Shown one piece after another: positions 18,346-42,683 of a stretch of 64,000 nucleotides of DNA. This stretch comes from Pleurocapsa sp. PCC 7319 (lineage in GTDB: Bacteria > Cyanobacteriota > Cyanobacteriia > Cyanobacteriales > Xenococcaceae): NCBI RefSeq assembly GCF_000332195.1, contig NZ_KB235922.1:1946211-2010210 (forward strand). The letters are read 5' to 3'. Below the pieces are notes generated by a model. It saw only the letters and a program-made list of their open reading frames with translations. It ran no database searches and had not been told where the DNA came from. How positions within the stretch are numbered: the stretch's first letter is position 1; each line of letters opens with the position of its first letter. The translations under genes and the position numbers were made by a program.

Positions 18346-18585
18346 TTTGGTGAAATTGTCTCTAAAAACTGGATTAAGCCTATTGTTCCCCAAACTAATA
18401 AGAAACTTGCAATATACAAGTATGATGCAGCCTTCTACGTAGTTTTCGCTATCTCCTAAGTAATAAGAGCCGAAAAAATATGTAGATTTTGTAAATTCAG
18501 CAAAAATACGTAGGTGCAATCTCTAATCTTTGTATATACTTACGTATAGTCAAGCTTAATTAAGATATTAGAGGAAGTAAGTATT

Positions 18586-18696
18586 ATGAATAAAAAAGAC
18601 AAAAAACAAACCCAAAACAACCCTCTTTTTGTTCCTTTAACTGCAAAAGAGCAGCAGCAGCTTTCTGGTGGTGGAAGACGTTCCGGTGGTGGCTAG
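18586..18696 (+). CDS. Short double-glycine leader peptide (36 aa), candidate C39 exporter substrate
   Basis: An ATG at 18586, preceded by a strong Shine-Dalgarno (AGAGGAAG, 18570-18577), opens a 36-codon frame ending TAG at 18694-18696. The Lys/Gln-rich start leads to NPLFVPLTAKEQQQLSGG. The hydrophobic/acidic spacing before L-S-G-G fits a class II bacteriocin-type leader (L18, E22, L26, G28, G29). Cleavage after Gly29 would release only seven residues, GRRSGGG. A C39 exporter with an intact active site lies 4 kb away, and an intrinsic-type terminator follows. A function as secreted peptide or signal is inferred; no bacteriocin activity can be claimed. Confidence 0.7.
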   Translation: MNKKDKKQTQNNPLFVPLTAKEQQQLSGGGRRSGGG

Positions 18697-18754
18697 GTCG
18701 TGTAAACAACTAGCTCTAAAACAAACTAAACAAATTGATTTAAGTTTAGATTTA

Positions 18755-18810
18755 TTGACGGCTCGATTTTTCTCAGTAGAAAAGTCAAGTCTTTTTTTTG
18801 CTTTTTTTCT
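18755..18810 (+). terminator. Likely intrinsic terminator after the GG peptide
   Basis: TTGAC (18755-18759) pairs with GTCAA (18784-18788), and TTTTCT (18768-18773) with AGAAAA (18778-18783). Together they form a bulged hairpin, followed by two long T-runs (18791-18798 and 18802-18808). It lies 59 bp after the peptide stop codon. Confidence 0.5.
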
Positions 18811-19057
18811 TTACAAGCTCATTCTTACTGCCAATAGCTCAGTTAAACCCAACTATATTCATTAAATCAAAGATAATTTTGACAATCAGTTATTTTTACA
18901 CGCTCCAGAGTAAGTAATCTTCAGCATTGGCGATCGCTCTCTACAGATTGGTTCATAATCGATTAATGATAGGTAAATTATTTCTCCGTGTCTCCCCATC
19001 TCAGTGTCAACTTCAACCCATCAACTAAAAGTTGACAGACCACTAATACTCCTCATT

Positions 19058-19191
19058 GTTAGCCCTGGTGACGGAGAAGATACTATTGTTGATTTTGATT
19101 TGGGACGCGATCGCCTTGGTTTAGCGGGAGATCTGGAATTTGACGATCTGACTTTTTAATCCTCTAAAAATTTGAGGTGGGTTTAGTAGCT
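19058..19191 (+). pseudogene. Relic of the C-terminal RTX region, duplicated from the 21412 gene
   Basis: Bases 19058-19156 are nearly identical to 24367-24465, the end of the RTX gene. They translate as [20 protein letters not shown] and on to DDLTF before TAA at 19157-19159. After a deletion the next bases, CCTCTAAAAATTTGAG, match the sequence around and after the RTX gene stop (24555 onward). There is no start codon and no upstream portion, so it is the scar of a lost or rearranged second copy. Confidence 0.85.
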
Positions 19192-19341
19192 CTAAATCAC
19201 CTACAGATGTAGAAAGATAATAATAAATTATTAAAAACATTATTATATTTAGTATAATTAATACTATTGCTAGTAATGTTATTCATTTAACATTTTTGGG
19301 CTTTCTATAAGTGTGCCTCTCACTAAGCATAGTTATAGAGT

Positions 19342-21159
19342 ATGTTGACTCCAAATATTTTTTGGCAACAGTTAGAATTAAATCAACTCAGCAAAGTTGA
19401 TTTAAAGGTTGATATACATAGATATCTATCTTCCCCCTCAATTTCTTGGCTAGCTTTAGCATTAGTATTCACAGGGGTACAGCCGTTAAATGCTGAGGAA
19501 GTAGGTTTAATCAAAACAGCTGAACATAAAGATAGTTCCCATCATTACTCAGAGCTGTTAACTAAATCTCTACCCATACCTAAAACAAAAACTCAAGAAC
19601 GAGGCAATAACCAGCAAAAATCTTTGAGTACTCCGGCTCATCAGGACTCAATTATTGCTCAAAACTCTGATGATATTCCTGAAGAAATTGTGGTTAAAAA
19701 TTTTGAGGTGGTTGGCAGTAGTGTTTTTAGTAGAGAAGAGCTAGTTGCAAAAATTAAACCTTATCGTAATCGTCCTCTAACTTTACCAGAGCTATTTCAA
19801 GTTAAAAGTGTGATCACTAAACTTTACACCGATCGAGGATATGTCAATTCTGGTGCATATATACCTCCCCAGGAACTTGATGATGGTACAGTCAAGATCG
19901 CCGTTTTGGAAGGTCAATTAGAAGAAATTAACGTCTCAGGAACCAAACATCTCTCCCCAAAATATATCTCCTCTCGTCTTGAGGCTGCTGCGGGAAAGCC
20001 CTTGAATGTTGACTCTTTATTGTCTGCTCTACAGTTATTACGGCTTAATCCTCTAATTGATAATATTTCGGCAGAATTATCGGCAGGTATTCGTCCTGGA
20101 ACAAGCTTACTCGATATTGAAATTAAAGAGGCAGATGTTTTTAATATTTCCACTAGTCTTAATAACAATAGATCGCCTAGCGTCGGCAGTAATCAGCGTT
20201 CTGTCGGTTTAAATCACGGTAATTTATTCGGGTTTGGAGATCAATTTAGCTTTAACTATACCAATACCGAAGGCAGCAATAGTTTTGATTTTGCCTATGC
20301 TCTGCCTGTAAACACCAAAAATGGCACGATTAAAGCAGCTTACAGTAGTAATGATAATGATGTGATCGAAGAACCCTTTACCCCTCTCGATATTGAATCT
20401 AAATCACGCTATTATGAGTTAAGTTTTCGTCAGCCTCTAATACTCAAACCAAATCAAGAATTTTCTATCGGCTTGAGTCTCTCCCATACTGATAGCGAAT
20501 CTTTTCTTCTTGATGACACATTTCCTTTATCTCGTGGTGCCGATGAAAATGGAGAAACTAGAATTAGTGCCATCAGGTTATTTCAAGAATTTGTTAATCG
20601 AAATGATAAACAGGTATTAGCATTTCGTTCTCAATTCAGTATTGGGGTGGATGCTCTCAATGCAACCATCAATGATGATCAGCCTGACAGTACTTTTTTT
20701 GCTTGGCGAGGACAAAGCCAATGGGTAAGAGAGCTAGATGAAGATCTTTTATTGCTTTTACGGGGAGATGCTCAATTATCAGGTGGAAGTTTAGTCTCTT
20801 TAGAACAGTTCCGGATTGGCGGAGTTAGTAGTGCTAGAGGTTATCGTCAGGATTTGAGTTTGGGAGATAATGGACTATTTGCCTCGGCAGAGTTACGAAT
20901 CCCGATTCTCAGATTGAGAAAAATTGATGGCTTAGTCCAAATTGCCCCTTTCATTGATATTGGCACAGTCTGGAACAATGATGAGGTTGAGATTGCCAAT
21001 ACGACTCTTCCTTCCTTAGGAGTAGGCTTGAATTTCGCTACGGGAACTAATTTTAATGCTCGTTTAGATTGGGGGATTCCTATAGTAAATATCGACAATG
21101 AGGGTGATTCTCTTCAAGAAGATGGGATTTACTTTTCCATCGATTACAACTTCTTCTAG
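19342..21159 (+). CDS. TpsB outer-membrane transporter (ShlB/FhaC/HecB family)
   Basis: A 605-aa Omp85-type transporter for TpsA exoproteins. An N-terminal export region (hydrophobic segment about 31-49, ending NAEE) is followed by a linker, two POTRA domains (about 117-275, e.g. VVKNFEVVGSSVFSREEL and INVSGTKHLSPKYI) and a 16-strand barrel to the C-terminus. The lid-loop signature VRGY is present as ARGY (498-501), and the protein ends with aromatic residues (YFSIDYNFF), as outer-membrane barrels do. Its partner TpsA is encoded 1 kb away on the opposite strand. The stop codon overlaps a 37-bp direct repeat shared with 25815. Confidence 0.92.
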   Translation: MLTPNIFWQQLELNQLSKVDLKVDIHRYLSSPSISWLALALVFTGVQPLNAEEVGLIKTAEHKDSSHHYSELLTKSLPIPKTKTQERGNNQQKSLSTPAHQDSIIAQNSDDIPEEIVVKNFEVVGSSVFSREELVAKIKPYRNRPLTLPELFQVKSVITKLYTDRGYVNSGAYIPPQELDDGTVKIAVLEGQLEEINVSGTKHLSPKYISSRLEAAAGKPLNVDSLLSALQLLRLNPLIDNISAELSAGIRPGTSLLDIEIKEADVFNISTSLNNNRSPSVGSNQRSVGLNHGNLFGFGDQFSFNYTNTEGSNSFDFAYALPVNTKNGTIKAAYSSNDNDVIEEPFTPLDIESKSRYYELSFRQPLILKPNQEFSIGLSLSHTDSESFLLDDTFPLSRGADENGETRISAIRLFQEFVNRNDKQVLAFRSQFSIGVDALNATINDDQPDSTFFAWRGQSQWVRELDEDLLLLLRGDAQLSGGSLVSLEQFRIGGVSSARGYRQDLSLGDNGLFASAELRIPILRLRKIDGLVQIAPFIDIGTVWNNDEVEIANTTLPSLGVGLNFATGTNFNARLDWGIPIVNIDNEGDSLQEDGIYFSIDYNFF

Positions 21160-21194
21160 TAGGTCATCGCAAAATAAATAATGCTTAACTTAGC
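21158..21194 (+). repeat. 37-bp direct repeat, left copy
   Basis: Begins AGTAGGTCATCGCAAAATAA and ends TTAACTTAGC. It matches 25815-25851 with about four mismatches, in the same orientation. The two copies enclose the ELWxxDGT-RTX gene and the TIGR03032 gene. This copy starts within the tpsB stop codon. Confidence 0.7.
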
Positions 21195-21411
21195 TAGGCA
21201 TCAGACAAACTCTACCTGTCTTGGTTAGAGCATTAATTTCTGCTATTGAACATACCGTAGCATAGTAAAATTTTATTAGAGTGATTTTGAGCGGTTTAAA
21301 TGAGTGTAGGTTGTTGTTTTTCAAACAAACAATACAAACGACCTTATTTGGTGTGAATTATTAGATTAACAACAATTTATTAATTGATTGCTAGCAATCA
21401 AATTAAAGCTG

Positions 21412-24400
21412 ATGGAAAACAATTTAAGTCAAGTTGTATTAGTTAAAGATATTCGTCCTGGTGCTAATAATTACGGTTATGTCTATAGTTCTTCTCCCTC
21501 TAATCTAACTGAGTTCAACGATCAGCTATATTTCACCGCCAATGATGGTGACAATGGTGATGAACTTTGGGTCAGCGATGGTACCACCGAGGGAACTCAA
21601 TTGGTTGCCGATATTCACCCTGGTAGTAGTGATTACGGCAATGCTTATGGCTCTTATATCAGTAATTTTACTGAGTTCAGCGATAAATTATATTTCACCG
21701 CCAATGATGGCGAAAATGGTTTTGAGTTATGGGTCAGTGATGGTACCACCGAGGGAACTCAATTATTAGTCGATATTCGTACTGGGACTAGCAACTACGG
21801 TTATTATGGTTCTTTTCCGAGTAGCTTCACTGAGTTCAATGACAAGCTATATTTTACTGCCAATGACGGCGAAAATGGCAATGAACTCTGGGTAACCGAC
21901 GGTACAACTAGTGGTACCCAATTAGTTGCCGATATTCGCCCTGGAACTAGTGATTACGGTGATGCTTATAGTTCCTTTATCAGTTACTTGACCGAGTTCA
22001 ATGACAAGCTATATTTTACCGCCAATGATGGTGACAATGGTGATGAACTTTGGGTCAGCGATGGTACCACCGAGGGAACTCAATTGGTTGCCGATATTCA
22101 CCCTGGTAGTAGTAATTATGATTATGCTTATGGTTCCTATGCCAGTAATTTTGCCGAGTTCAACGATAAATTATATTTCACGGCCAATAATGGCGAAAAT
22201 GGTAATGAACTCTGGGTAACCGATGGCTCCACCGAAGGAACTCAATTGCTGGTTGATATCAATCCTGGTAGTAGTGATTACGGTGACGCTTATAGTTCCT
22301 ATGCCAGTAACTTTATCGAGTTCAACGATCAGCTATATTTCACGGCTAATGATGGTGACAATGGCAATGAACTCTGGGTAACCGATGGCTCCACCGAAGA
22401 AACTCAATTAGTTACTGATATCCGCCCTGGTAGCAGTAGTTCCTATGCCAGTAATTTTATTGAGTTCAACGATAAATTATATTTCACGGCTAATGATGGT
22501 GACAATGGCAATGAACTCTGGGTAACCGATGGCTCCACCGAGGGCACTCAATTGCTGGTCGACATTAATCCTGGAACTAGTAATTACGGCTATGCTTATA
22601 GTTCCTATGCCAGTAATTTTATTGAGTTCAACGATAAATTATATTTCACGGCTAATGATGGTGACAATGGCAACGAACTCTGGGTCAGCGATGGCACCAC
22701 CGAGGGCACTCAATTAGTTACTGATATCCGCCCTGGTAGCAGTAATAACAGCTATATTTATAGTTCTTCTCCTAATAATTTGACGGAGTTCAACGGCCAG
22801 CTATATTTCACCGCCAATGATGGTGACAATGGCAACGAGCTCTGGGTCAGTGATGGCACCTCTGAGGGCACTCAATTACTGGTCGACATTCGTCCAGGTA
22901 GTAGTGATTATGGTTATATCTACGGTTCCTATGCCAGTGATTTTATTGAGTTCAACGAGCAGTTATATTTCACGGCTGATGATGGTGAAAATGGTAGAGA
23001 ACTCTGGGTCAGTGATGGCACCTCTGAGGGCACTCAATTGCTGGTCGACATTCGTCCAGGTAGTAGTGATTACGGTTATAATTATGGTTCTGTCCCCGAT
23101 GATTTGACGGAGTTCAACGATCAGCTATATTTCACGGCTAATGATGGCGAAAACGGTAGAGAACTCTGGGTCAGCGATGGCACCTCTGAGGGCACTCAAT
23201 TGCTGGTCGACATTAATCCTGGTAGTAGTGATTACGGTTATAATTATGGTTCCTATGCCCGTAACTTAACAGAGTTTAACGAGCAGCTGTATTTTACGGC
23301 CAATGATGGTGACAATGGCAATGAACTTTGGGTTAGCGATGGCACCTCTGAGGGCACTCAACTGCTGGTCGATATTAATCCTGGTAGTAGTGATTACGGT
23401 TATAATTATGGTTCCTATGCCCGTAACTTGACAGAGTTCAACGAGCAGTTATATTTCACAGCTGATGATGGTGAACATGGTAACGAACTCTGGGTCAGCG
23501 ATGGCACTACCGAGGGCACTCAACTGCTGGTCGACATTCGTCCAGGTAGTAGTGATTACGGTTATAACTATAGTTCTTCTCCTGATAATTTGACAGAGTT
23601 CAACGGCCAGCTATATTTCACGGCCCATGATGGTGAACATGGTAATGAACTCTGGGTCAGCGATGGCACTACCGAGGGGACCCAACTGCTGGTCGACATT
23701 CGCCCTGGTAGTAATGATTACGGTTATAACTATAGTTCTTCTCCTGATAATTTGACAGAGTTCAACGGCCAGCTATATTTCACAGCTGATGATGGTGAAA
23801 ATGGTAACGAACTCTGGGTCAGCGATGGCACCACCGAGGGCACTCAACTGCTGGTCGACATTCGTCCAGGTAGTAGTAGTTACGGCAATGCTTATGGCTC
23901 CTATGCTAGTAGCTTTGCCGAGTTCAACGGTAAGCTATATTTCACGGCCAATGATGGTGAAAATGGTAACGAACTCTGGGTCAGCGATGGCACCACCGAA
24001 GGGACTCAATTAGTTGCTGATATCCGCCCTGGTAGTAGTGATAACAGTTATGCTTATAGTTCTTATCCCAGCAATTTAACCATTACTGATGATGAATTAT
24101 TTTTTAGTGCGAATGATGGTGAAAATGGTGATGAGCTGTTTAAGTTAACCGTTGATGATTCACCTACTGTTATTAGTGGTACTAATCGCCCTGATAATCT
24201 TGTGGGGACGAATGGTGCAGACGAAATTGAAGGCTTAAAGGGTCAAGATACCCTTGATGGTAGTGCTGGTAATGATACTCTCCTTGGCGGCAATGGCAAA
24301 GATAAGCTAGTTGGTGGTACTGGCGATGATATTTTAACTGGCGGGGCTGGAAAAGATATCTTTGTTGTTAGCCCTGGTGATGGAGAAGATACTATTGTTG

Positions 24401-24561
24401 ATTTTGAGTTGGGACGCGATCGCCTTGGTTTAGCTGGAGATCTGGAATTTAACGATCTGACTTTTTCTGGAAATACAATTCAAACAGGTGATGAACTATT
24501 AGCAACTCTGAATGGTTTGAATACTGAAGACCTCACGGTTCATGACTTTTTGGGCCTCTAA
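21412..24561 (+). CDS. Giant ELWxxDGT-repeat protein with C-terminal RTX calcium-binding repeats
   Basis: A 1049-aa protein from ATG 21412 ([14 protein letters not shown]); an in-frame TTG at 21388 is a less likely start. Seventeen tandem repeats of 54 residues (162 bp; one of 53, one of 48, the last divergent) fill about residues 8-920. Consensus landmarks are [29 protein letters not shown] and [13 protein letters not shown]. The tail (about 925-1049) has RTX nonapeptides ([24 protein letters not shown]) and [11 protein letters not shown], a type I secretion-style C-terminus. There is no N-terminal signal peptide, consistent with type I export. It is probably a surface or secreted adhesin-like protein. 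Repeats are nearly identical at DNA level, so copy number may vary. Confidence 0.9.
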
Positions 24562-31175: not shown

Positions 31176-32189
31176 TTACGAGGTTTTAGGAGGATTAAAT
31201 TTACCTCCTCTGATGAAAAAACTATTGCGAAGAAAGTCAATTAATAACTTCGGTGGATCTTCATATGGCTTTCTTTGAATTACTCGACGTAACTGCCACA
31301 ATACATAACTAGAAGCCCAAGTGTGATCGGCCAGAGCAGTATATAGCCAACCATAGTTTTTGAGAAAATATCGCCGCCTTGAATCAAACAAATACTGTGG
31401 CAAACGTTTAGAAGGACATTTTGTATTATTGAGACCTGAACTTTGTCCAACCAAATGAACAACTCGACTTTGAGGTACATACCAACAGCTCCAGCCAGCT
31501 CTCTTTGCTTGTAAGCAAAAGTCCATTTCTTCAGAGTACATGAAATAACCTTCATCCATTAAGCCTATCTGCTCAAACACTTCACGACGGATAATCATGC
31601 TAGCTCCCGCAACCCAATTAGTTTGACATTTATCTTTGGGTACTGGCGGTGCAACTACCCATTTTGACAGTAACTTAGTAACTATGCCGAGATGCAAACC
31701 AGAATCCAGCTCACTTAGCAAGCTAGGAAAACGAAAAGCTGACCTCTGGGGCGTACCATCAGGATCTTCTAAACGACTGCCAGCAATTCCCACCTGTGGA
31801 TGTCGATTCATAAAGTCTACTAATATATCGATCGCATTAGGGCGAACGATCGTGTCTGGATTGAGCAATAAAAAGTATGAGGGAGGATTATTTGACTTTA
31901 ATACTGAACGGATCGCAGCATTATTACCAAAGGCGAAGCCACCGTTATGTTGTAGCGGCATTACTGATGCCCAGTTGTTCCATCCCTCAGTTTCAATCGC
32001 AGCTTGAATTCTGGCAACTGAGACGTCTCCAGAAGCATTGTCGGTAACGACGACACTTGTACCTGCTAGCGATCGCACTTCATCTACTAGGGAGCGCAAG
32101 CAATCGATAGTTAGCTCAGGTGTCCGATAGTTAACAATAACAATTATTAAAGAGTTGGCATCATTCTGCTTCATTGTATAAGACATCAA
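31176..32189 (-). CDS. Glycosyltransferase family 2 (rhamnosyltransferase-like)
   Basis: A 337-aa enzyme with IVIVNYRTPELTIDCLRSL, VVTDNASGD (about 46-54), NGGFAFGNNAAIR (about 82-94), the metal site N-P-D-T (LLLNPDTIVRPNA), and the acceptor-side block GASMIIRREVFEQIGLMDEGYFMYSEEMDFCLQA. This combination is typical of WbbL/RfbF-like rhamnosyltransferases and related GT2 enzymes. It is the most 3' gene of a minus-strand run (37882 down to 31176) that builds polysaccharide. Confidence 0.9.
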   Translation of the reverse strand: MMSYTMKQNDANSLIIVIVNYRTPELTIDCLRSLVDEVRSLAGTSVVVTDNASGDVSVARIQAAIETEGWNNWASVMPLQHNGGFAFGNNAAIRSVLKSNNPPSYFLLLNPDTIVRPNAIDILVDFMNRHPQVGIAGSRLEDPDGTPQRSAFRFPSLLSELDSGLHLGIVTKLLSKWVVAPPVPKDKCQTNWVAGASMIIRREVFEQIGLMDEGYFMYSEEMDFCLQAKRAGWSCWYVPQSRVVHLVGQSSGLNNTKCPSKRLPQYLFDSRRRYFLKNYGWLYTALADHTWASSYVLWQLRRVIQRKPYEDPPKLLIDFLRNSFFIRGGKFNPPKTS

Positions 32190-32264: not shown

Positions 32265-33500
32265 TTAAGGTAGGTGTTCTTTAATCAATTTACTTCGCTG
32301 ACGGAAAACTGTTTCATCATTAAATCTGTTCCCGTTTTTGCTAGCTTCCTTAATTAGTTGAGATAAGCGTAGTCGATCTTTTGACAAGCTAGCGATAAGT
32401 TCTCCCAATTGCCTCCAGTCTTTAGTAGGCACTAACATACCACCACCAAAGTCTTGAATAAGCTCTTCAGCATATTTACTTCGGTAGCCAATAATAGGTG
32501 TTCCACAAACTAGAGCTTCGATTAAACAGCGTGGAGATTCTGGAGTGACGTGAGAAAAGAGCATAAGATGAGATTCCTTTATTCTTTTAAGCAACTTATC
32601 CCGGTATTGTTCAAATCCAAGCAGCTCAATATAAGAATTGAGATTTAAATTGGCAATCATTACCTTCATTTGTGCTAACAAAATCCCTGAACCAATCCAA
32701 GTAGCGTGGAAGTCTGCTTCTAAATCCCTAGCTTTTCCTATTGCTCTAACCCAGTCCAGAGGAGCTTTCATTGGATCTATCCGTCCTACATAACAGATGC
32801 GGATTTTCTGACCGCTAGTAACAGACTGGATTTTTTCAGCAAGTTCTATATCGCTTATACAGTCGGATTCCTTGGTATGGATGTCGTGAATTAGATAGTT
32901 ATTTTGGCAAAAAGGACTATATGCAGAAAAACAATCATCTCCATGCCAAAGACCAAGAGAGCAATTTTGAATAATCCACTTGTGGTATCTAGCCATTAAA
33001 GCCGCCATGACCCCAGTCTTAATTCGTGTTTGTAGTTTTGCCCTCCTGGTTAGGTTCAGTATGACTTCATGTTCGACACGATCGGTATGGATGGCATAGG
33101 CTCGGCACTGTTTATGAGCTTCCAGCGCTGCAACCGCTGCCCAGTCACCAAACAAGCCCCCAATTGCAAATTGAAGATAGCGACAACGAGAAATTAACTC
33201 TGCTAGAGAAGCACGCACTGAAATGTAGCAGGAAATAAATTTTAATGGTGAGTAAGCCCAAGGCAATGGAAGCAGTTCAAATCGATTAGGAGTAGCTAGT
33301 GAAGATGTATTTCGCCAAGTCGTCGTTGCATCTTGTGCCGCTAATGACTCAGGAATGACTGGTGCAGCTACAATAACTGACTCGAAATTATTGGCCCATT
33401 GCTCTAAGCCATTACAAGCTTGGGATTCAAAAAATAGTTTATTTCCTTGGACTCGAAAAGGCACAGGCAAAACGAGTAACATATCTTTGTGTTTCATCAA
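32265..33500 (-). CDS. Glycosyltransferase, GT4-like (GT-B fold)
   Basis: A 411-aa protein. The C-terminal half has the GT4 pattern: RICYVGRIDPMKAPLDWVRA (about 233-252), the ESPRCLIEALVCGTPIIGY donor-site helix with its Glu residues (about 338-356), and GGMLVPTKDWRQL. The N-terminal half is divergent. It would transfer an activated sugar with retention of configuration. It lies 75 bp upstream of the GT2 gene within the minus-strand polysaccharide run. Confidence 0.85.
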   Translation of the reverse strand: MMKHKDMLLVLPVPFRVQGNKLFFESQACNGLEQWANNFESVIVAAPVIPESLAAQDATTTWRNTSSLATPNRFELLPLPWAYSPLKFISCYISVRASLAELISRCRYLQFAIGGLFGDWAAVAALEAHKQCRAYAIHTDRVEHEVILNLTRRAKLQTRIKTGVMAALMARYHKWIIQNCSLGLWHGDDCFSAYSPFCQNNYLIHDIHTKESDCISDIELAEKIQSVTSGQKIRICYVGRIDPMKAPLDWVRAIGKARDLEADFHATWIGSGILLAQMKVMIANLNLNSYIELLGFEQYRDKLLKRIKESHLMLFSHVTPESPRCLIEALVCGTPIIGYRSKYAEELIQDFGGGMLVPTKDWRQLGELIASLSKDRLRLSQLIKEASKNGNRFNDETVFRQRSKLIKEHLP

Positions 33501-33586: not shown

Positions 33587-35002
33587 TTATGTTGAATCGG
33601 AATAACCCCTAATCAAAGTTGGAGAAAGACGATCAACTTCCCTTAAACTATTAAAGTTCTGCCTGCTTAACACTAATCCCGCTATTCCTCCAGATGCGAG
33701 GGTAAAGACTGGATTAAACTGATTATTTAATGTGCAGTCAAGCATATATAAAGTTGTAATCGTTGCTAGCATTGCTGCTGGTGCAACTTTAGGATTAAAC
33801 CAAGAACTGGCTGGATAACCCAACCAAAAGAAACTCAATGCAGGTAATAATGAGGAGCTAAATATGGCAATCAGACCTACACTACCATTGATTCCAAAAG
33901 CGAGAATCCACAAGCTATCTGTAATAGTAGTATCTTTTAATTCTCCTTGGTAGTTAAACTCAAAAACACGGTTACGATCCCATCCTCCCCAACCAAATAT
34001 CATTTTTTGGCGAGCCTTTTCTCCCAATACCTCTTCATTATCTAATCTAAACTCTAGTGACTGCGCTCTATTTGGTCCCACTATATTTCCAGCAATAGAG
34101 ACAACTCGATCCGATCGCTCTCCAGTTAAAGCCCCAGTTGCTCCCAAAAATATATAGGAGGATATCATCACTATCAAAACTAACAGAGGTATAGCTGTTC
34201 GGAACCACTTGGCAACAAACAAAATAACTACTCCCAATAAAAGATATAAATATGCACCAGTGGATTTGACTAACAAAAATGTAATCAGCAAAACTAGTAC
34301 ACACCAGGCTATATGAAAGACATAATTGAAGCCGCCAGTTTTCTTGATGATATTGGCTTGCCATAACCAAATACCAATTAACGTTGCAGCCATCATCCAC
34401 ATCCCCACACTCAAACCATGTTCCATAAAGACATTGGGTCTAAAGCCGCCATAACGAATTGATTGAGTAAACTCTTCAATACCGTGATAGCCATAAATTA
34501 TGTTGTGCAGTTGGGGGCTAATGGCAACTTCGAGCAGACACAAAGGAACATATATTAATCCACCAAGAAAAATACCAATTACTAATTGGCGCATTCCAGT
34601 AAGGTTATTGAGATATATTCGACCTAGAAAATAAGGTACTCCGTAGATAACTAAAGTTCCTAAAGATGCCGATAAACCGTCGTAAATACCTAGACCATTA
34701 GTAATTGATGAAGCAAAAGGACAAAGGCACCAAACTATCATTGGCAGATCTAACCAGCCAAATTTATACAGTCGAAGGCGTTGTCGATCGCATAGGCAAG
34801 TAGCTAACAAAACACTGTAGCAAGCAGCAGATAAAGTCGTATAGTCGGGAATTAAGGGTAGAGGAAATTCTACCAACTGTGGCAAAAATAGCGCTCCCCC
34901 AATAAAGCTGATAACCACCGCTTTTTGTGAGGAAAAACGATGAAATAGATAGATTACAAATGGTGTCCAGGCGATCGTAACAAGTTGTGCTTGAGGTGTC
35001 AT
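33587..35002 (-). CDS. O-antigen ligase/polymerase-like membrane protein (Wzy-like)
   Basis: A 471-aa protein with about ten to twelve membrane helices and a large periplasmic loop between about 195 and 370. Landmarks are YHGIEEFTQSIRYGGFRPNVFMEHGLSVG (about 170-200) and KSTGAYLYLLLG (about 245-256), a pattern seen in O-antigen polymerases and ligases: R-x-x-G-x-x-x-N-x-x-x followed by S-x-G. It most likely polymerises the repeat units flipped by the neighbouring transporter. Assignment is by topology and context plus these weak motifs. Confidence 0.75.
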   Translation of the reverse strand: MTPQAQLVTIAWTPFVIYLFHRFSSQKAVVISFIGGALFLPQLVEFPLPLIPDYTTLSAACYSVLLATCLCDRQRLRLYKFGWLDLPMIVWCLCPFASSITNGLGIYDGLSASLGTLVIYGVPYFLGRIYLNNLTGMRQLVIGIFLGGLIYVPLCLLEVAISPQLHNIIYGYHGIEEFTQSIRYGGFRPNVFMEHGLSVGMWMMAATLIGIWLWQANIIKKTGGFNYVFHIAWCVLVLLITFLLVKSTGAYLYLLLGVVILFVAKWFRTAIPLLVLIVMISSYIFLGATGALTGERSDRVVSIAGNIVGPNRAQSLEFRLDNEEVLGEKARQKMIFGWGGWDRNRVFEFNYQGELKDTTITDSLWILAFGINGSVGLIAIFSSSLLPALSFFWLGYPASSWFNPKVAPAAMLATITTLYMLDCTLNNQFNPVFTLASGGIAGLVLSRQNFNSLREVDRLSPTLIRGYSDST

Positions 35003-35068: not shown

Positions 35069-36415
35069 TTATAAAATTCCGTCAATCGGTAATCCAAAGC
35101 CCAACCAATAACGTCCTGTTAAAAATAAAGTTAGTAACCCAATCAGTAATAGGGTTGCCTGAAGATCCTGTAAAATTACTGTCAGCTTTTCTCGCCAAAG
35201 ACCATAAGAAACCACTGCATAAAAAGGAAGATCGTTTAAAGCGATGACAATCAACGTTCCCAAAACCCCAATTTGAGAGAAAGCTAAAGGTAATCCGATT
35301 AACATATATGTGAATTTAACAATATGTCCAAAAGCCAAATAACTGGGATTGCCAATCACTAGTAATGCTCGATCAATGGTTACGGATAACATTACAGGCC
35401 AAAGTCCTAACGCCAATATGGGTAACATCCAAGCAGCTTGAATAAACCGCTCATCGTAGAGTTGAATAATTAGCAAATCTCCAAAGGTAACTAAGAGAGT
35501 CAAGAAGAGGGCTTGCCCAATGAGAATAAACTTTCGTTTTTTGATAATTTTGGCTCTCAGACTTTTACGTGGTAAATCTGCGTATTGAGCAATGACTGGA
35601 AAGATGACATTATTACTAACATTTTGAATCACTTGCTCTGGTAAACTGGCAAAGGTAAACGCTACGGAATAAACCCCCAGCATACTAAAGGAGAAAAGCT
35701 TCCCTAAAATCAGTCGATCTGCTTGTGAAGCTAAAAATGTCATGGCAGTGGACAAAAATATCCATCTACCAAAGGTAGCTATTTCGCTGATAATCTCTTT
35801 ATTCCAGGCAAAACGATTGGGTTTTCCTGAATTTAAGCGATGACTCCAGAATAATTGGCTCAAGGCTGACACAAAAGTGCCGCCTATTAAAGCCCAGATC
35901 GTCGGACTAAGCCAAGCCCAAACCAGCATAACTGTTAAAGAGATAATCTGCGTTCCCATCTCAAACAGGGTTAACTTGCCAATTTCCATATGGCGGCTAA
36001 AGCTAGCCAGACTGGTAGAAGTAAAGCCCCAAATAACAGAAGTAAAACCAACTAATGGAATCAGCCATAAAAGTCTTGGGTCTTCATAAAATTGAGCAAC
36101 TGGAAAAGCAATTAAAATACAACACAGCCAAATGCCGAAACCACGTATTACTTGTATTGTCCAAGCAGTATTCAGAAAAACAGGATCGTCTCCACGCTGA
36201 TGGCGAACAATACTGGGTTCAATGCCGATATCTGAAAACAATTCTAGGCCAGTGATAAATACATGAACTAAAGCCATCAGCCCAAAAAGCTCAGGTACTA
36301 ACAGACGAGTTAAAATCAGATTACCGCCCAATCGTATACTTTGACTTGCTCCATGACCAACAATGGTCCAAATCGTTCCGTGAATAGCTTTCTTTTTGAG
36401 AGTACCTGATGACAT
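35069..36415 (-). CDS. Polysaccharide flippase (Wzx / MATE-like, MOP superfamily)
   Basis: A 448-aa protein with 12-14 helices. It starts like lipopolysaccharide flippases (KKKAIHGTIWTIVGHGASQSIRLGGNLILTRLLVPELFGLMAL) and contains DIGIEPSIVRHQ and the MTFLASQADRLILGKLFS segment typical of Wzx-type exporters. It would flip lipid-linked repeat units across the inner membrane for the O-antigen polymerase-like protein encoded 66 bp downstream. Confidence 0.92.
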   Translation of the reverse strand: MSSGTLKKKAIHGTIWTIVGHGASQSIRLGGNLILTRLLVPELFGLMALVHVFITGLELFSDIGIEPSIVRHQRGDDPVFLNTAWTIQVIRGFGIWLCCILIAFPVAQFYEDPRLLWLIPLVGFTSVIWGFTSTSLASFSRHMEIGKLTLFEMGTQIISLTVMLVWAWLSPTIWALIGGTFVSALSQLFWSHRLNSGKPNRFAWNKEIISEIATFGRWIFLSTAMTFLASQADRLILGKLFSFSMLGVYSVAFTFASLPEQVIQNVSNNVIFPVIAQYADLPRKSLRAKIIKKRKFILIGQALFLTLLVTFGDLLIIQLYDERFIQAAWMLPILALGLWPVMLSVTIDRALLVIGNPSYLAFGHIVKFTYMLIGLPLAFSQIGVLGTLIVIALNDLPFYAVVSYGLWREKLTVILQDLQATLLLIGLLTLFLTGRYWLGFGLPIDGIL

Positions 36416-36607: not shown

Positions 36608-37882
36608 TTACTGAATAGTGCTGGGGTGAACTTCTTTGAGTAACCTATTGTCTAGATTTACTATTTGTGAACTAGTCTTACTTTTCGATTCTCTAAACAG
36701 AGCAATTAATTTTTTAGCTTCCACAGAAATATTGTGCTGCTGGATAATTTTCTCTCGTCCCTGCTGACTCATATGCTCTAGCTCATTGACTGGCAGGCGT
36801 AAAACAGTTCTCATCGTCGAGGCTAAATCTTCTACAGAACCTGCTGATACTAACCATCCACAACTTTCGTGTTCGATTAATTCGGGAATGCCGGCTATAT
36901 AAGTACCAATAACTGGACGACCTAAAGCCAAGGCTTCCATCATGACTACTGGTAATCCCTCGGCAAAACTAGCTAAGACCATTGCTCGTGAATTGAGAAT
37001 ATATTGGCTAACTTGAGAATTAGTAACCCAGCCAGTGATTTCAACCTGATTTTCTAATTCAAGCTCCGCTATGGCATGTTCAACTTGAGGTCGAAAGTCT
37101 CCATCTCCTACGAAAGTTAGCTTAAACTCCAGTCCTTCCCGAGCTAGTTGACTAGCTGCTTCTAATAAAATCAACTGACCTTTCTGCTCATTTAATCTCC
37201 CCACACAAACTAACTGGGAATTATCTGGTATGGGAGTGAGCTGGTGTTTTAAAAACAGTTCATCTAAACCACAATGAACCACATGAATTTTTGACCAGTA
37301 GGCGCGATCGCACCAACGGTAAAGCTGACTTTTACAATATGAACTAATTGCGGCGACGAAAGTTGCCCGTTTAATTTTTTCTGCAAGAGATAAAATAATT
37401 GCCCGATCAATCTCTTCCGGTCCATGAACGGTAAAACTATAGGTAGGACCCCCTAATTCATGACATAGCATCGCTACTGTCGTGGGATTAAAAGCAAAGT
37501 GAGCATGAATATGAGATATGGCTGAAGCTTTGACCCAACCCAATAAAACACAGGCTTCTGCTAGATAAGCCAGGTGAATTAATAAACCTCGATCTTGCCC
37601 CCAACCAATCTTCATCGTTAACCACAAAGTAGCCAGAAAACGTATGGGTCTAGTAATGGCAACTAGAATTAAATTAACTAATAAGTTAATTACACCAGCT
37701 TCTAAAATAAATCTAGTTTTCTCCAGTTCACGTTTATCCGCTTCATCAACTAATTCGGCAGCACAAGAACGAATTGCATATCGAACTACTTGAATTCCTT
37801 CTGCTTCTAATGCGGCAATCTCTCGCCTGATAAAACTATGACTTACCTTAGGGTATTGACTAATTAAATAAGCAATTTTCAT
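36608..37882 (-). CDS. Glycosyltransferase family 4 (exopolysaccharide type)
   Basis: A 424-aa GT-B enzyme starting MKIAYLISQYPKVSHSFIRREI. It has H-I-H-A-H-F-A (about 127-133), SFTVHGPEEI (about 150-159), LVCVGRLNEQKGQLILLEA (about 223-241), and the donor-site block SFAEGLPVVMMEALALGRPVIGT (about 311-333). This matches the exopolysaccharide/colanic-acid GT4 branch. It is the first gene of the minus-strand run and is divergent from the PqqD-tailed glycosyltransferase across 594 bp. Confidence 0.92.
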   Translation of the reverse strand: MKIAYLISQYPKVSHSFIRREIAALEAEGIQVVRYAIRSCAAELVDEADKRELEKTRFILEAGVINLLVNLILVAITRPIRFLATLWLTMKIGWGQDRGLLIHLAYLAEACVLLGWVKASAISHIHAHFAFNPTTVAMLCHELGGPTYSFTVHGPEEIDRAIILSLAEKIKRATFVAAISSYCKSQLYRWCDRAYWSKIHVVHCGLDELFLKHQLTPIPDNSQLVCVGRLNEQKGQLILLEAASQLAREGLEFKLTFVGDGDFRPQVEHAIAELELENQVEITGWVTNSQVSQYILNSRAMVLASFAEGLPVVMMEALALGRPVIGTYIAGIPELIEHESCGWLVSAGSVEDLASTMRTVLRLPVNELEHMSQQGREKIIQQHNISVEAKKLIALFRESKSKTSSQIVNLDNRLLKEVHPSTIQ

Positions 37883-38476: not shown

Positions 38477-39985
38477 ATGTTTATAGATGTATTGGTAACA
38501 ATTTTTAGAGATGTTATCTTTTTGATGTCAATTTTTACTCTAAGTCAAATTATTATTCTTTTTACTGAATGTTTTTTGGCGTTATTACCTAATAATAATG
38601 AGTTGAAAGAGCAAAATAAGTTAATTAGACCGAGGATGGCGATCTTGGTGCCTGCTCATAATGAAGAAACAGTGATTGTCAGAACTTTGAAAGCATTGCT
38701 GCCACAATTGACTCATCAAGATCGGTTAATAGTAATTGCGGATAATTGTAATGATAAAACAGCAGAGTTATCTCGAAAGTTAGGGGTAACTGTAATCGAA
38801 AGAAACGATTCTCTAAATCTTGGTAAAGGTTATGCCTTGGATTATGGTCTTCGTTATATTCAGTTAAATCCTCCGCAAATAGTGGCAATCGTTGATGCTG
38901 ACTGTATTGTTCAACCAGATGCGATCGATCAAATTGCTTTGGAAGTAATGAGAACCAAGCAACCAGTTCAAGCTGTTTATTTAATGGAGCAACCAGCTAC
39001 ATCAAATCCTCATAATTTGCTCTCTGCACTGGCATTTAAAATTAAAAATTTAGTTCGTCCTCAAGGCTTATACCAGCTTAACTTGCCCTGTTTATTAACA
39101 GGTACAGGCATGGCTTTTCCCTGGTCAGTAATTTCTCAAGTGTCTTTAGATAGTAGCAACCTTGTCGAAGATATGCAATTGAGTATAGACTTGGCTCTTG
39201 CAGGAAAACCCCCAAGATTTTGTCCCCAGGCTCAAGTCAGGGGAATTTTGCCTCAAAAAGAGCAATCCGCTCATAGTCAGAAAAAAAGATGGACCCATGG
39301 GCATTTAAAAACTATTTTTTCTCAATGCCCCAGATTGCTTAAACAGTCGGTTGTTCAAAGACGTTGGGATTTACTGGCGATCGCTTTAGATTTATTTGTC
39401 TTACCTTTATCTTTACTAGTAATGATCTGGCTTATAGCCATGACTGGAGGACTAGTGATAGGAATCCTGCAGGGAGAATGGAGAATTCCTATTTTATCGA
39501 CAATATCAGGAGTTCTCTTATTTATTTCTCTTATCGGAGCTTGGATCAAGTTTGCTCGTAATGATGCACCACTTAAAACCTTGCTCACCATACCTTGGTA
39601 TCTGTTTAGAAAACAACTGCCAGTATATCTAGCCTTTATTTTTAACCGTCAGCAGCAATGGGTAAAAACTGAAAGAGATGAAATTGCCGAGCCAATATTC
39701 TCTCTATCATCCCAAGTATCAGCAGCCCCAGAACAGATCTCCGCTGAAATTGCCAGTGGTGCAATTATTTTTCACACCCAATCTGGTTCATATTTTAGTT
39801 TGAACGAAATAGGAACATTTATCTGGAGGCTGATTCAAGAGCCGCAATCGATCACAGATATTCGTGACACTATTATCCAAGAATACTCGGTCACTCCTGA
39901 AGTATGTTTGCGCGATCTATTAACAATTTTAGAGCAGCTAGCTAAAAAGGAATTAATTGAAATTAGTAACGAGTCTATTGCTTGA
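38477..39985 (+). CDS. Processive-type GT2 glycosyltransferase fused to a C-terminal PqqD/RRE-like domain
   Basis: A 502-aa membrane protein. An N-terminal helix (about 12-37) precedes a GT2 domain (about 50-290) with LVPAHNEE, the D-A-D metal site (140-142), E-D (231-232) and QKKRW (268-272). These are the D, DxD, ED and QxxRW signature of processive enzymes such as cellulose or poly-GlcNAc synthases. Further helices lie at about 300-385. The last domain (about 418-498) reads as PqqD-like: G-A-I-I-F-H-T, G-S-Y-F-S-L-N-E-I-G-T-F-I-W, then an acidic helical half ending L-A-K-K-E-L-I-E-I. PqqD-type domains are leader-binding elements in peptide-modification pathways, and a small peptide gene follows directly. 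Confidence 0.88.
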   Translation: MFIDVLVTIFRDVIFLMSIFTLSQIIILFTECFLALLPNNNELKEQNKLIRPRMAILVPAHNEETVIVRTLKALLPQLTHQDRLIVIADNCNDKTAELSRKLGVTVIERNDSLNLGKGYALDYGLRYIQLNPPQIVAIVDADCIVQPDAIDQIALEVMRTKQPVQAVYLMEQPATSNPHNLLSALAFKIKNLVRPQGLYQLNLPCLLTGTGMAFPWSVISQVSLDSSNLVEDMQLSIDLALAGKPPRFCPQAQVRGILPQKEQSAHSQKKRWTHGHLKTIFSQCPRLLKQSVVQRRWDLLAIALDLFVLPLSLLVMIWLIAMTGGLVIGILQGEWRIPILSTISGVLLFISLIGAWIKFARNDAPLKTLLTIPWYLFRKQLPVYLAFIFNRQQQWVKTERDEIAEPIFSLSSQVSAAPEQISAEIASGAIIFHTQSGSYFSLNEIGTFIWRLIQEPQSITDIRDTIIQEYSVTPEVCLRDLLTILEQLAKKELIEISNESIA

Positions 39986-40100
39986 TTTATCTAATAAATA
40001 CAAAATCATTTAACGAGAATTGCCTACTTAAAATAACATTTAGTTTATTTGTAAATATTTCTGTTTTTTATGATATTAAAAATTTAATTTTAAAATAGCT

Positions 40101-40110
40101 TAAGGAGACG
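40101..40110 (+). promoter_or_regulatory. Strong ribosome-binding site of the 58-aa peptide gene
   Basis: TAAGGAGACG, with a perfect AAGGAG core, lies seven to twelve bases before the ATG at 40117. Few genes in this window have so good a site, which supports translation of the short frame. Confidence 0.7.
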
Positions 40111-40116
40111 AATTAT

Positions 40117-40293
40117 ATGCAATCGGTTAAGAAAAAATATTTTCCACCTCAACTTGAAGAATTAAAAGATTTTACTGAAAATCATCAGCTCAATAAGATT
40201 ATTACATCTCAAAATTACGATAGAGAAAAGGTGGAAAAACTATTGCGCTCGAAAAATAATCTAGCTAATTATCTCTCTTTTTTACATAGCTAA
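40117..40293 (+). CDS. Small peptide (58 aa) with YxxPxL leader-type motif
   Basis: An untracked 58-codon frame with a strong ribosome-binding site, 131 bp after the PqqD-tailed glycosyltransferase. The N-terminus MQSVKKKYFPPQLEELKDFT contains Y8-x-x-P11-x-L13, the motif by which lasso-peptide and related leaders bind PqqD-like recognition elements, and F19/T20 sit near where such leaders carry a conserved Thr. The rest is helical and charged (NKIITSQNYDREKVEKLLRS) and ends NLANYLSFLHS. No lasso cyclase or leader protease is in the window. It may be a modified peptide, or a small partner of the glycosyltransferase. Confidence 0.65.
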   Translation: MQSVKKKYFPPQLEELKDFTENHQLNKIITSQNYDREKVEKLLRSKNNLANYLSFLHS

Positions 40294-40511: not shown

Positions 40512-42683
40512 ATGCAAAAGTCACTAATCGATTCCGAACAAAATTTACTCCTTCCTGCTCAACAAGAGTTGAATATTATTTCTATCTTGAGAACTATTAA
40601 GCGAAATGTAGTGCCAATTGCTGGTATTACAGCATTAGCTACAGCCATAGCTTGGTACAGTAATCGCCTACCTACCTATACTGGTAATTTTCAACTGTTG
40701 GTCGAACCTGTAAGTTCAGAAGGTATACTTACTGCACCTAGTACCCTAACTGGTTCTAGTCAACAAGTAGATTTAAGACAATTAGAAATGGACTATTCGA
40801 CGATTATTGCTCTTCTCAAGAGTCCAGGAATGTTGTCTTCTATTGTTCAGGAAATTCAAACTCAGTATCCAAAACTTAGTTTGGAAAAACTCAAAGATAA
40901 ATTAGCAATTGAACGTCTCGGTTCCAGTCCGATTGAGCAAACGAAAATTATTCAAGTTAATTATCAAAATTCAGATCCAGAACTAGTACAGTTAATTTTA
41001 GAAGAAACTGCTAAAAAATATTTAAGTTACTCCCTTGAGGAGCGGAAAACTCGTATTGGTCAGGGAGTTGAATTTATTGAACAACAATTGCCTGATTTAT
41101 ACAATCGAGTAAATAGATTACAGGCAAATCTACAAAATTTACAGGAACAAAATCAGTTAATCGATCCTCAATCTAAGGGAAATAATTTATTAGAACAAAT
41201 TCGTAAACTCAAAACACAGAAATTTGAAACTCAAAACCAACTGAATAAACTCAAAACCCTGAAAGAAAGCTTACAACGGCAATTAAAAGTCAACCCAGAT
41301 GAAGCAATTGCCATCACGACTTTGAGTGAAGATCCTAACTATAAATCGCTACTGGAAAAATATAAAAATGTAGAAAGTGAAATTGCCATTAATTCGGTAC
41401 TTTATCAAGTTAATAGCCCTAATATCCAAAGACTAGAGGTAAAACGTCAGAATTTACTAGACTTGTTAGCTCAAGAAAGAAGGCGAATTTTGCTAGGGAG
41501 TTCTCCAACTGGAGGTAGTATTCCTCTTTTGTTGAACTCGCAAAATTCAATTCTCTCGAAAATGACTCAGGAACTAGTTGAGACAATCAATCAAATTAAG
41601 CAGTTGGAGGTGCAGAATAATTCTTTATCTAGGACTATCAATGAGTTTGAGTGGGAAGCAAGGAAGATTCCCCAAATAGCTCGCCAATATACCCAGCTTC
41701 AGCAAGAGTTAGAAATCGCTAATCGAACTCTTCAACAACTTCTGACTCAGAAAGATACTTTGAGTGTGGAATTAGCCCAAAGCCAGGTTCCTTGGGAGAT
41801 AGTGTCTAAACCTCAACTGAAGATGGATGAGAAAGGGAATCCTCAGCCAATTCCCATGAATTCAGAGAAAAAGTTATTAGCCGCCCTAATAGGCGGTTTA
41901 CTGGCGGGAATAGTTGCAACTGCATTTTTAGAAAAATCTCACAATGTTTTCTATACTGCCGAAGATATTGAAGAAACCACGAAGCTACCATTATTGGGCA
42001 ATATTACCTGGAATGATTCACCCGAACGGTTGCCTAACGCTACCAACTCTGGACTCCTAGTTAAGTATGAAGATAGTAACCATAATCCTGAATCTATTTT
42101 TGAGTCTTTCAGAACCCTTTATACTAATCTTCGGTTTCGCTTTACTGAACCACCGATACGTTCATTAGTCCTTTCTTCTGCTATAGAGGATGATGAGCAA
42201 CCGACAATTGCTTGGAATCTGGCTGATACCGCAGCAGCTACAGGTCAAAAAGTACTATTGGTAGATGCCACTTTTTCTCATCCCCAACTTCAAGTTAAGT
42301 CTTACTCAGCTAATAAAGTAGGATTGAGCGAGCTATTAACTAATCAAACTGATTTGAACCAAGTTATTCAGCCCTCTTCTCATAGAGACAATCTTTTTAT
42401 TTTGGCTTCTGGGCAAATACCCGCAGATTCTTCAAAACTATTATCATCAAATCAAATGCAACAACTAATTGAAGAATTTCGGCAATCATTTGATTTAATC
42501 ATTTATAATACATCACCTATTTTGGAAAGTATGGATAGTGTTTTTCTGGCTACCCATACAGATGGGATTTTAATGACAGCAGCGATTAACAAAACTAAAA
42601 AATCTTTATTTACCCAGGCTTTAAATCAGGTTAACAATTTTAATCTCAAGTTGTTGGGGATAATTTCTACGCAGATACTTTAA
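40512..42683 (+). CDS. Wzz/Wzc-like polysaccharide co-polymerase with degenerate tyrosine-kinase domain
   Basis: A 723-aa protein: Wzz domain with a first helix at about 36-52, a long periplasmic coiled coil (about 190-430) including a G-rich-type lipid-chain-length segment, a second helix (about 452-470), and a cytoplasmic BY-kinase-like domain (about 520-723). The kinase is degenerate: the Walker A loop expected at SSxxPGEGKST reads SSAIEDDEQPT, Walker A' is VLLVDATFSHP, and the Walker B Asp is lost (LIIYNTSP). There is no C-terminal Tyr cluster. It probably controls chain length or export for the cluster without kinase activity. Confidence 0.88.
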   Translation: MQKSLIDSEQNLLLPAQQELNIISILRTIKRNVVPIAGITALATAIAWYSNRLPTYTGNFQLLVEPVSSEGILTAPSTLTGSSQQVDLRQLEMDYSTIIALLKSPGMLSSIVQEIQTQYPKLSLEKLKDKLAIERLGSSPIEQTKIIQVNYQNSDPELVQLILEETAKKYLSYSLEERKTRIGQGVEFIEQQLPDLYNRVNRLQANLQNLQEQNQLIDPQSKGNNLLEQIRKLKTQKFETQNQLNKLKTLKESLQRQLKVNPDEAIAITTLSEDPNYKSLLEKYKNVESEIAINSVLYQVNSPNIQRLEVKRQNLLDLLAQERRRILLGSSPTGGSIPLLLNSQNSILSKMTQELVETINQIKQLEVQNNSLSRTINEFEWEARKIPQIARQYTQLQQELEIANRTLQQLLTQKDTLSVELAQSQVPWEIVSKPQLKMDEKGNPQPIPMNSEKKLLAALIGGLLAGIVATAFLEKSHNVFYTAEDIEETTKLPLLGNITWNDSPERLPNATNSGLLVKYEDSNHNPESIFESFRTLYTNLRFRFTEPPIRSLVLSSAIEDDEQPTIAWNLADTAAATGQKVLLVDATFSHPQLQVKSYSANKVGLSELLTNQTDLNQVIQPSSHRDNLFILASGQIPADSSKLLSSNQMQQLIEEFRQSFDLIIYNTSPILESMDSVFLATHTDGILMTAAINKTKKSLFTQALNQVNNFNLKLLGIISTQIL

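What the first reader, a model, noticed from the sequence alone, without database searches (positions are those of the whole stretch)
38477..40293. PqqD/RRE-tailed glycosyltransferase followed by a YxxPxL leader-type peptide gene: candidate undescribed peptide-glycan system
The processive-type GT2 enzyme (DAD, ED, QxxRW all present) ends in a domain that reads as PqqD (FxLNEIGxxIW plus helical half). PqqD-like elements bind leaders of ribosomally made modified peptides. Directly downstream, behind an excellent AAGGAG site, is a 58-aa gene whose leader has Y8-x-x-P11-x-L13, the element bound by PqqD-like domains in lasso and related pathways. No lasso cyclase, B2 protease or radical-SAM enzyme is present; instead the pair sits in a Wzx/Wzy polysaccharide cluster. 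Possible meanings are a peptide glycosylated by the fused enzyme, a peptide primer or acceptor for the polysaccharide, or a small regulator of the glycosyltransferase. The motif match and fusion are seen; the joint function is inference.
Basis: partly seen in the sequence, partly recalled or inferred. Interest (0 to 1): 0.88.

Follow-up and report, generated by a model that had tools for sequence, protein, structure and literature searches.

The report
Lasso-type peptide grip on polysaccharide glycosyltransferase
A cyanobacterial sugar-polymer enzyme carries a peptide-gripping tail of the kind used to make lasso peptides, and the next gene encodes a small peptide with the matching handle, so a ribosomal peptide seems to have been wired into the making or control of a cell-surface polysaccharide; what the peptide does there is not yet known.

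Summary
The GT2 at 38477-39985 ends in a bona fide PqqD/RRE domain (Pfam 3.9e-18; TbiB1 of a lasso pathway 5.2e-13), and the 58-aa gene at 40117-40293 carries KKKY8xxP11xL13. Two other genomes of the genus hold the same pair; the peptide profile finds exactly these 3 of 291 genomes of the order. The tails form one clade (100/99). Two syntenic loci whose GT2 lacks the tail also lack the peptide and hold a pentapeptide-repeat gene there.

The tail keeps the YxxP-binding pocket. In 25 of 25 single-type cyanobacterial lasso-type loci one RRE residue matches the first leader residue (Y/D 16, W/E 7, F/Y 2); the fused pairs fit (Y/D, 3 of 3). The peptides lack the G(+9) and T(+15) of 33 accepted lasso-type precursors. 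So a lasso leader/RRE grip was moved onto a synechan-type EPS glycosyltransferase. Binding is very likely; whether the peptide is glycosylated or regulates the enzyme is open. RRE-glycosyltransferase fusions are mentioned in print, uncharacterised (PMC7470986, PMC12710340).

The parts
38477..39985 (+). GT2 glycosyltransferase with C-terminal PqqD/RRE tail, 502 aa
   Evidence: single ORF; Glyco_tranf_2_3 8e-22 at 52-275 and PqqD 3.9e-18 at 429-494; EpsU-like 2.8e-48 but far below that model's cut-off; 45% identical over residues 5-401 to a GT2 of Synechocystis pSYSM
39761..39958 (+). PqqD/RRE tail, residues 429-494; pocket residues include N443, Y470, D480
40102..40107 (+). AAGGAG ribosome-binding site of the peptide gene
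   Evidence: sequence
40117..40293 (+). 58-aa leader-type peptide, KKKYFPPQLEELK...; ligand of the RRE tail (inferred)
40138..40155 (+). codons of Y8-x-x-P11-x-L13, the RRE-binding motif
   Evidence: invariant in the three peptides
40512..42683 (+). Wzc-type chain-length determinant / tyrosine autokinase; follows the peptide in all three loci
   Evidence: TIGR01007 2.7e-33 over cut-off
36608..37882 (-). GT4 glycosyltransferase, divergent, same cluster
   Evidence: Pfam 1.5e-34
35069..36415 (-). Wzx-type flippase
   Evidence: Polysacc_synt_3 5.2e-47
33587..35002 (-). Wzy-type polymerase
   Evidence: Wzy_C 5.1e-07, 30.0 bits, just below cut-off
32265..33500 (-). GT4 glycosyltransferase
   Evidence: Pfam 1.1e-18
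31176..32189 (-). GT2 glycosyltransferase
   Evidence: Pfam 1.8e-10

Best explanation
A lasso-type leader/RRE pair was captured by an EPS glycosyltransferase. SHOWN by sequence: the GT2 of a synechan-like Wzx/Wzy cluster bears a C-terminal lasso-type RRE with the YxxP pocket; the next gene makes a short hydrophilic peptide whose N-terminus is a matching leader; in the five syntenic loci seen, tail and peptide are present together (3) or absent together (2); the peptide lacks the lasso-processing residues. INFERRED, very likely (about 0.88): in the cytosol the tail grips KKKYxxPxL of the peptide, as lasso RREs grip their leaders. INFERRED, most likely of several (about 0.42 for the whole chain): the gripped peptide is held with its Ser/Thr-containing C-terminal part at the cytosolic active site of the membrane-bound GT2, which puts sugar on it, giving a glycopeptide made inside an EPS locus.
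For: RRE. Pocket: at 12 leader-contact positions taken from PMC13381572 (passages) every letter of the fused tails also occurs among 36 stand-alone RREs, save one Val at the divider position in G008; N443 and D480 equal LppB N33 and D70, the two residues whose introduction strongly raised PbaB1's binding of a Tyr leader. Code: Y/D 16, W/E 7, F/Y 2 of 25 single-type loci, fused Y/D 3 of 3; on the tree the W label needs 7 changes, 4 forced by strong branches. Co-occurrence: all 3 fusions found have the peptide, and the peptide profile hits no other of 291 genomes; the two syntenic tail-less loci lack it. One origin of the tail. Topology: one hydrophobic stretch before and two after the catalytic domain, so the tail should lie on the cytosolic, catalytic side (inferred). 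Precedent: a nucleotidyltransferase (NTP_transf_5) with a C-terminal PqqD tail exists in the class (L212), and RREs are described as delivering substrate to the enzyme (PMC12710340, passages).
Against: No glycosylation shown. The GT body looks unchanged: the two full fused GTs share 5 private residues, within the 0-8 of the other printed pairs of like identity, and tail-less relatives sit in the same slot, so a new acceptor is not needed to explain the enzyme. The C-terminal parts of the peptides are poorly conserved; only S31 and L42 are invariant after K17. The residue that divides the pocket, Phe in three crystal RREs, is I/I/V here (and L or I in 32 of 36 stand-alone RREs). No leader peptidase or exporter gene was noticed beside the pair. 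Only three cases are known.
Confidence: 0.42

Rival explanations
1. Regulator or adaptor: the tail binds the peptide, which is not modified but switches the GT2 on or off or docks it to a partner (such as Wzc) in the EPS machine.
For: GT body not specialised; two tail-less relatives occupy the same slot with a pentapeptide-repeat protein in place of the peptide; peptide lies between GT2 and Wzc in all three loci; C-terminal half weakly constrained.
Against: RRE domains are described as delivering a precursor to its modifying enzyme (PMC12710340, PMC7470986, passages); I read no case of a purely regulatory one, though RREs are said to raise enzyme activity too.
Confidence: 0.35
2. Peptide primer or cap: the glycosylated peptide becomes the covalent start or end of the exported polysaccharide.
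For: Same cluster as Wzx/Wzy; 5, 5 and 4 S/T residues after residue 20 of the three peptides.
Against: Wzx/Wzy chains are built on a lipid carrier (recalled knowledge); nothing in sequence links the peptide to export; peptide has no membrane stretch.
Confidence: 0.06
3. Relic: a lasso precursor and its RRE were captured by chance and the grip has no present role.
For: Lasso clusters lie next to EPS genes elsewhere in the family (L058, L154), giving raw material.
Against: dN below dS, invariant KKKYxxPxL, pocket and residue match kept across three diverged genomes.
Confidence: 0.09
4. The peptide is a lasso (or other) precursor processed in trans by enzymes elsewhere in the genome.
For: The window's genome has a separate cluster with PqqD, B2 and an HPr-kinase-like protein (L063), and one divergent Asn-synthase-like 602-aa protein far from any PqqD found (L230).
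Against: That protein matches the lasso cyclase model with 53 bits against a cut-off of 525, while G003 and G008 show clear Asn synthases; the peptides lack the G(+9) and T(+15) of the 33 accepted precursors, and the penultimate leader Thr is a processing signal (PMC10368454, abstract).
Confidence: 0.06

Closest known systems
Lasso peptide precursor / discrete B1 RRE (e.g. TbiB1, cyanobacterial clusters here)
   Same: RRE family, pocket, [YWF]xxPxL leader, one-residue leader/RRE match
   Different: RRE fused to a membrane GT2; no B2, cyclase or exporter noticed beside it; peptide lacks G(+9), T(+15)
Linear polyphosphorylated peptides (LPP), PMC13381572 (passages read)
   Same: linear peptide with YxxP leader, RRE, set in polysaccharide loci; variable C-terminus
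   Different: LPP has a discrete RRE, SipW-like peptidase, HprK-like kinase, NTP transferase and transporter; Bacillota
RRE-glycosyltransferase fusions named in PMC7470986 (section 10) and PMC12710340 (passages)
   Same: RRE fused to a glycosyltransferase (PF00535 in the second paper)
   Different: no leader, locus, conservation or function given in what I read; figures S6/S7 not seen
Synechan cluster GT2 slr5056 (xssO by letter order, my inference) of Synechocystis, PMC8205485 (passages read)
   Same: GT2 body 45% identical; Wzx/Wzy cluster with GT4, flippase and sulfotransferase, as in G003
   Different: no RRE tail in the 45%-identical protein; no leader peptide annotated beside it; mutant forms blooms but little EPS

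Membership tests
PqqD / RRE domain | profile match over the whole domain | tested here: met
   PF05402 2-67 of 67, 3.9e-18, over cut-off
[quoted passage not shown]
   single-sequence model, pLDDT 65: two strands and three helices, but a helix where the first strand should be; Foldseek best hit 5sxy PqqD only at E 0.78; full-length model poor in the tail
PqqD / RRE domain | hydrophobic cleft for Y and L of the leader, Asp for the Tyr | tested here: met
   the divider Phe is I/I/V, Val not seen in the 36 others
Lasso peptide precursor | YxxPxL leader | tested here: met
Lasso peptide precursor | Gly at Y+9 and Thr at Y+15 | tested here: not met
   0 of 3 fused peptides against 33 of 33 accepted lasso-type precursors (6 of 39 kept ORFs set aside as not precursors)
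Lasso peptide cluster | B2 protease and Asn-synthase-like cyclase in the cluster | tested here: not met
   none noticed near the locus; elsewhere a B2 and one divergent Asn-synthase-like protein
LPP | discrete RRE, SipW-like peptidase, kinase, NTP transferase beside the precursor | tested here: not met
   RRE is fused; the others not noticed among the ORFs read
RRE-dependent RiPP | precursor modified after RRE-guided binding | not testable with these tools
   needs binding and mass spectrometry
Wzx/Wzy EPS cluster | flippase, polymerase, chain-length kinase, GTs | tested here: met
   Wzy just under cut-off

The most novel reading that the evidence does not exclude
A ribosomal peptide is guided by a lasso-type leader grip to an EPS glycosyltransferase and is glycosylated there, so that RiPP-style substrate recognition and polysaccharide assembly are one pathway (peptide-polysaccharide conjugate or glycopeptide signal).
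Probability: 0.4. Interest if true: 0.86.

Novelty: new variant of a known kind. Interest (0 to 1): 0.7.

Why it matters
RiPP genes often sit in capsular polysaccharide loci of Bacilli and their roles there are called unknown (PMC13381572, passages). Here the link is physical: the peptide-gripping domain is part of the EPS enzyme. That makes the question testable with two proteins. The leader/RRE residue match found on the way (Y with D, W with E, F with Y) fits the fused pairs and fitted the one precursor that my first filter had missed (L179); it may help to pair RREs with leaders from sequence.

Tried and rejected
Scan for more leader-bearing genes in the three genomes with a KKYxxPxL DNA pattern: 43 sites (17, 7, 19) against 10, 4, 2 for the reversed pattern, so an excess in G008; all 43 were looked at: only 4 have a start with a ribosome-binding-like site, the three known genes and one 21-aa frame (L219) with the motif at its very end, taken as chance. 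Promoter scan: 7 sites against a shuffled mean of 14.3; terminators 3 against 1.1, all on the - strand inside the GT gene. No notable RNA fold after the peptide. The search for related loci with the GT gave 7 distant GTs only. Plasmid records: 71 hold a match, none covers 80% of the query. Of the other long PqqD frames in the order and class surveys, six were scanned: PqqD-radical SAM, two PqqD-B2, NTP_transf_5-PqqD and two of unknown body, none a GT2 by Pfam; G364's frame holds masked bases and was left; frames of about 150-240 aa were not scanned. AlphaFold models were weak and carry no weight here. First RRE tree held a wrong fragment for G003; discarded, rebuilt. The fused GT bodies do not group as sisters (G003 with tail-less G001, 86/98), so loss, replacement or recombination happened; not resolved. 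Nearest lasso RREs of the fused clade: unresolved; two W-type RREs (99/97).

One is QueC; the other is a divergent Asn-synthase-like protein, so I no longer say that the genome shows no cyclase-like gene; the in-trans rival rises from 0.05 to 0.06 and the regulator goes from 0.36 to 0.35.

Full report
1. What is there. The GT2 gene 38477-39985 reads as one 502-aa frame. Pfam gives a GT2 domain at 52-275 and PqqD at 429-494 (3.9e-18); NCBIfam's best PqqD-side match is a lasso PqqD chaperone model, 2e-15, below its cut-off. Against solved structures the tail matches TbiB1 (5v1u, 5.2e-13), 9x90 (3.6e-9) and 9x8z (1.2e-3). I take 9x90 and 9x8z to be PbaB1 and LppB of PMC13381572: the residue numbers named in the passages read that fall inside the printed fragments land on the named letters at one constant offset (checked by eye). 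The 58-aa gene follows after 131 nt with AAGGAG at 40102-40107.

2. Relatives. Among 13 genomes of the genus and 27 of the family, own included, two others have the fused form: G003 (518 aa) and G008 (contig begins inside the gene, so its upstream side is unknown). Both are followed by a YxxPxL peptide (alignment: M1 K5 K6 K7 Y8 P11 L13 E15 K17 S31 L42 invariant) and then by Wzc. The peptide profile hits 3 of 291 genomes of the order, these three. Pairwise dN/dS over the gene is about 0.24-0.43, with dS near saturation. PqqD surveys: 146 of 388 genomes of the order and 85 of 388 of the class have a match at the chosen limits; the row list was cut; among the rows listed and the six other long frames scanned no further GT2 fusion was found. 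A profile of GT C-terminus plus tail, run on 388 genomes of the class, matched over its whole length only in G000 among the rows listed (list cut; G003 and G008 are not among its listed genomes). The searched sets are samples of larger groups.

3. A natural comparison. In G001 (contig C85) and G022 (C22, another genus) the same neighbourhood (divergent GT4, then GT2, one gene, Wzc) has a GT2 ending soon after QQxWIRTER[DE], without tail, and in place of the peptide a pentapeptide-repeat gene of 181 or 185 aa (Pfam). No small frame with the motif lies in those two intervals. So in five syntenic loci tail and peptide are both present or both absent. The three tails form one clade, 100/99, while the two full GT bodies do not pair.

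4. Does the tail still grip? Using the leader contacts reported in PMC13381572, I compared 12 positions in the 3 fused tails and 36 stand-alone RREs. The pocket is kept in character; the divider Phe of the crystal RREs is I/I/V here and mostly Leu in the stand-alone set. N443 is Asn as in 35 of 36; D480 is Asp as in 25 of 36 (E in 9, Y in 2). In that paper changing PbaB1 G42 to N and Q79 to D strongly raised its binding of a Tyr leader; the fused tails have N and D there. I then paired 28 stand-alone RREs with the leaders of their loci: Y with D in 15, W with E in 7, F with Y in 2, one locus with both W and Y precursors with D, and three loci without a precursor by the first filter. One of the three (L179, D) has a Y leader when the filter is relaxed; the other two (L168, L172) gave none. 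So 25 of 25 single-type loci agree (0 of 200000 shuffles reach this; shuffles ignore kinship). On a tree built without that column the W label needs 7 changes, 4 of them forced by strong branches, so the match arose repeatedly. The fused pairs agree: Y with D, 3 of 3. The comparison was made after the letters were known, so for the fused pairs it is a fit, not a prediction.

5. Not a lasso peptide. From 28 lasso-type loci I collected ORFs with an aromatic-xxP motif and a ribosome-binding-like site: 55 candidates, 16 dropped as inside longer ORFs, 39 kept. Of these 33 (from 25 loci, three of them near copies in one locus) have Gly at +9 and Thr at +15; the other 6 look like chance frames, one being the RRE itself. 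The fused peptides have Lys at +9 and no Thr at +15 (0 of 3). The penultimate leader Thr is described as a critical processing signal, with rare Ile/Val exceptions (PMC10368454, abstract); that +15 is that residue is my reading. The window's genome has a B2 gene on another contig and no full-length Asn-synthase match: two partial ones of 25.4 and 24.1 bits are a divergent Asn-synthase-like protein of 602 aa and QueC. G003 and G008, searched alike, show clear Asn synthases.

6. What the enzyme is. The GT body is 45% identical to WP_011153593.1 on Synechocystis pSYSM, which by the order of locus tags is slr5056, hence xssO in PMC8205485 (my inference from sll5042-60 = xssA-S); [quoted passage not shown] The G003 cluster has GT4, flippase and sulfotransferase genes by Pfam, and a polymerase by likeness to the window's (no Pfam match). 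One hydrophobic stretch before and two after the catalytic domain put the tail in the cytosol with the active site (inference).

7. Mechanism. The grip is well supported. Its use is not. Precedent favours presentation of a substrate; the unchanged GT body and the weakly kept C-terminal half favour a regulator or adaptor. I give 0.42 to glycosylation, 0.35 to regulation, the rest to primer, relic and in-trans processing.

8. Novelty. What I read of PMC7470986 (section 10 in full) and PMC12710340 (passages) names RRE-glycosyltransferase fusions without function or leader. PMC13381572 (passages) places lasso and LPP clusters in capsular polysaccharide loci and calls their roles unknown. The present locus is a new variant: the RRE is part of the EPS enzyme and has its own leader peptide without lasso-processing residues. 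Searches that showed no report of it: (open-licence library only; listings seen).

Noticed in passing
28 lasso-type loci among L058-L179: RRE residue equivalent to PbaB1 Q79 matches the first leader residue: D with Y, E with W, Y with F, 25 of 25 single-type loci, with several independent switches.
   Followed up: yes
G000:C4:262001-282000 (L063:7342-10090): Cluster in the window's own genome with PqqD, B2, an HPr-kinase-like protein, an ACP-like ORF and a 119-aa precursor with YxxPxI...G.....T leader, but no cyclase within the 20 kb read; possibly a linear lasso-like product.
   Followed up: partly
L230:963-2771 (G000:C7): Divergent Asn-synthase-like protein of 602 aa, next to an ORF with a faint kinase-like match, far from the PqqD genes found.
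   Followed up: partly
L058:1352-9920 (G003) and L154:2243-11169 (G017): Lasso cluster with Asn-synthase cyclase divergently adjacent to a Wzc gene in two genera of the family; F-type leaders and Tyr at RRE position 79.
   Followed up: partly
L212:3932-5518: NTP_transf_5 nucleotidyltransferase with a C-terminal PqqD tail: another RRE-tailed transferase.
   Followed up: partly
L210:2171-4120: 649-aa protein with N-terminal PqqD and no other Pfam match, next to a small GT2-like ORF (by eye), in another cyanobacterium.
   Followed up: no
L167:5741-7113: Four lasso-type precursors with long RGG repeats in place of an ordinary core, three of them near copies.
   Followed up: no
window 12384-14525: ABC transporter with N-terminal C39 peptidase, the kind that exports double-glycine leader peptides (recalled), about 24 kb from the finding; the 58-aa peptide has no double-glycine.
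   Followed up: no
window 15658-24561: TPS-domain protein and ShlB-type transporter (two-partner secretion) followed by a large ORF with RTX-type calcium-binding repeats.
   Followed up: no
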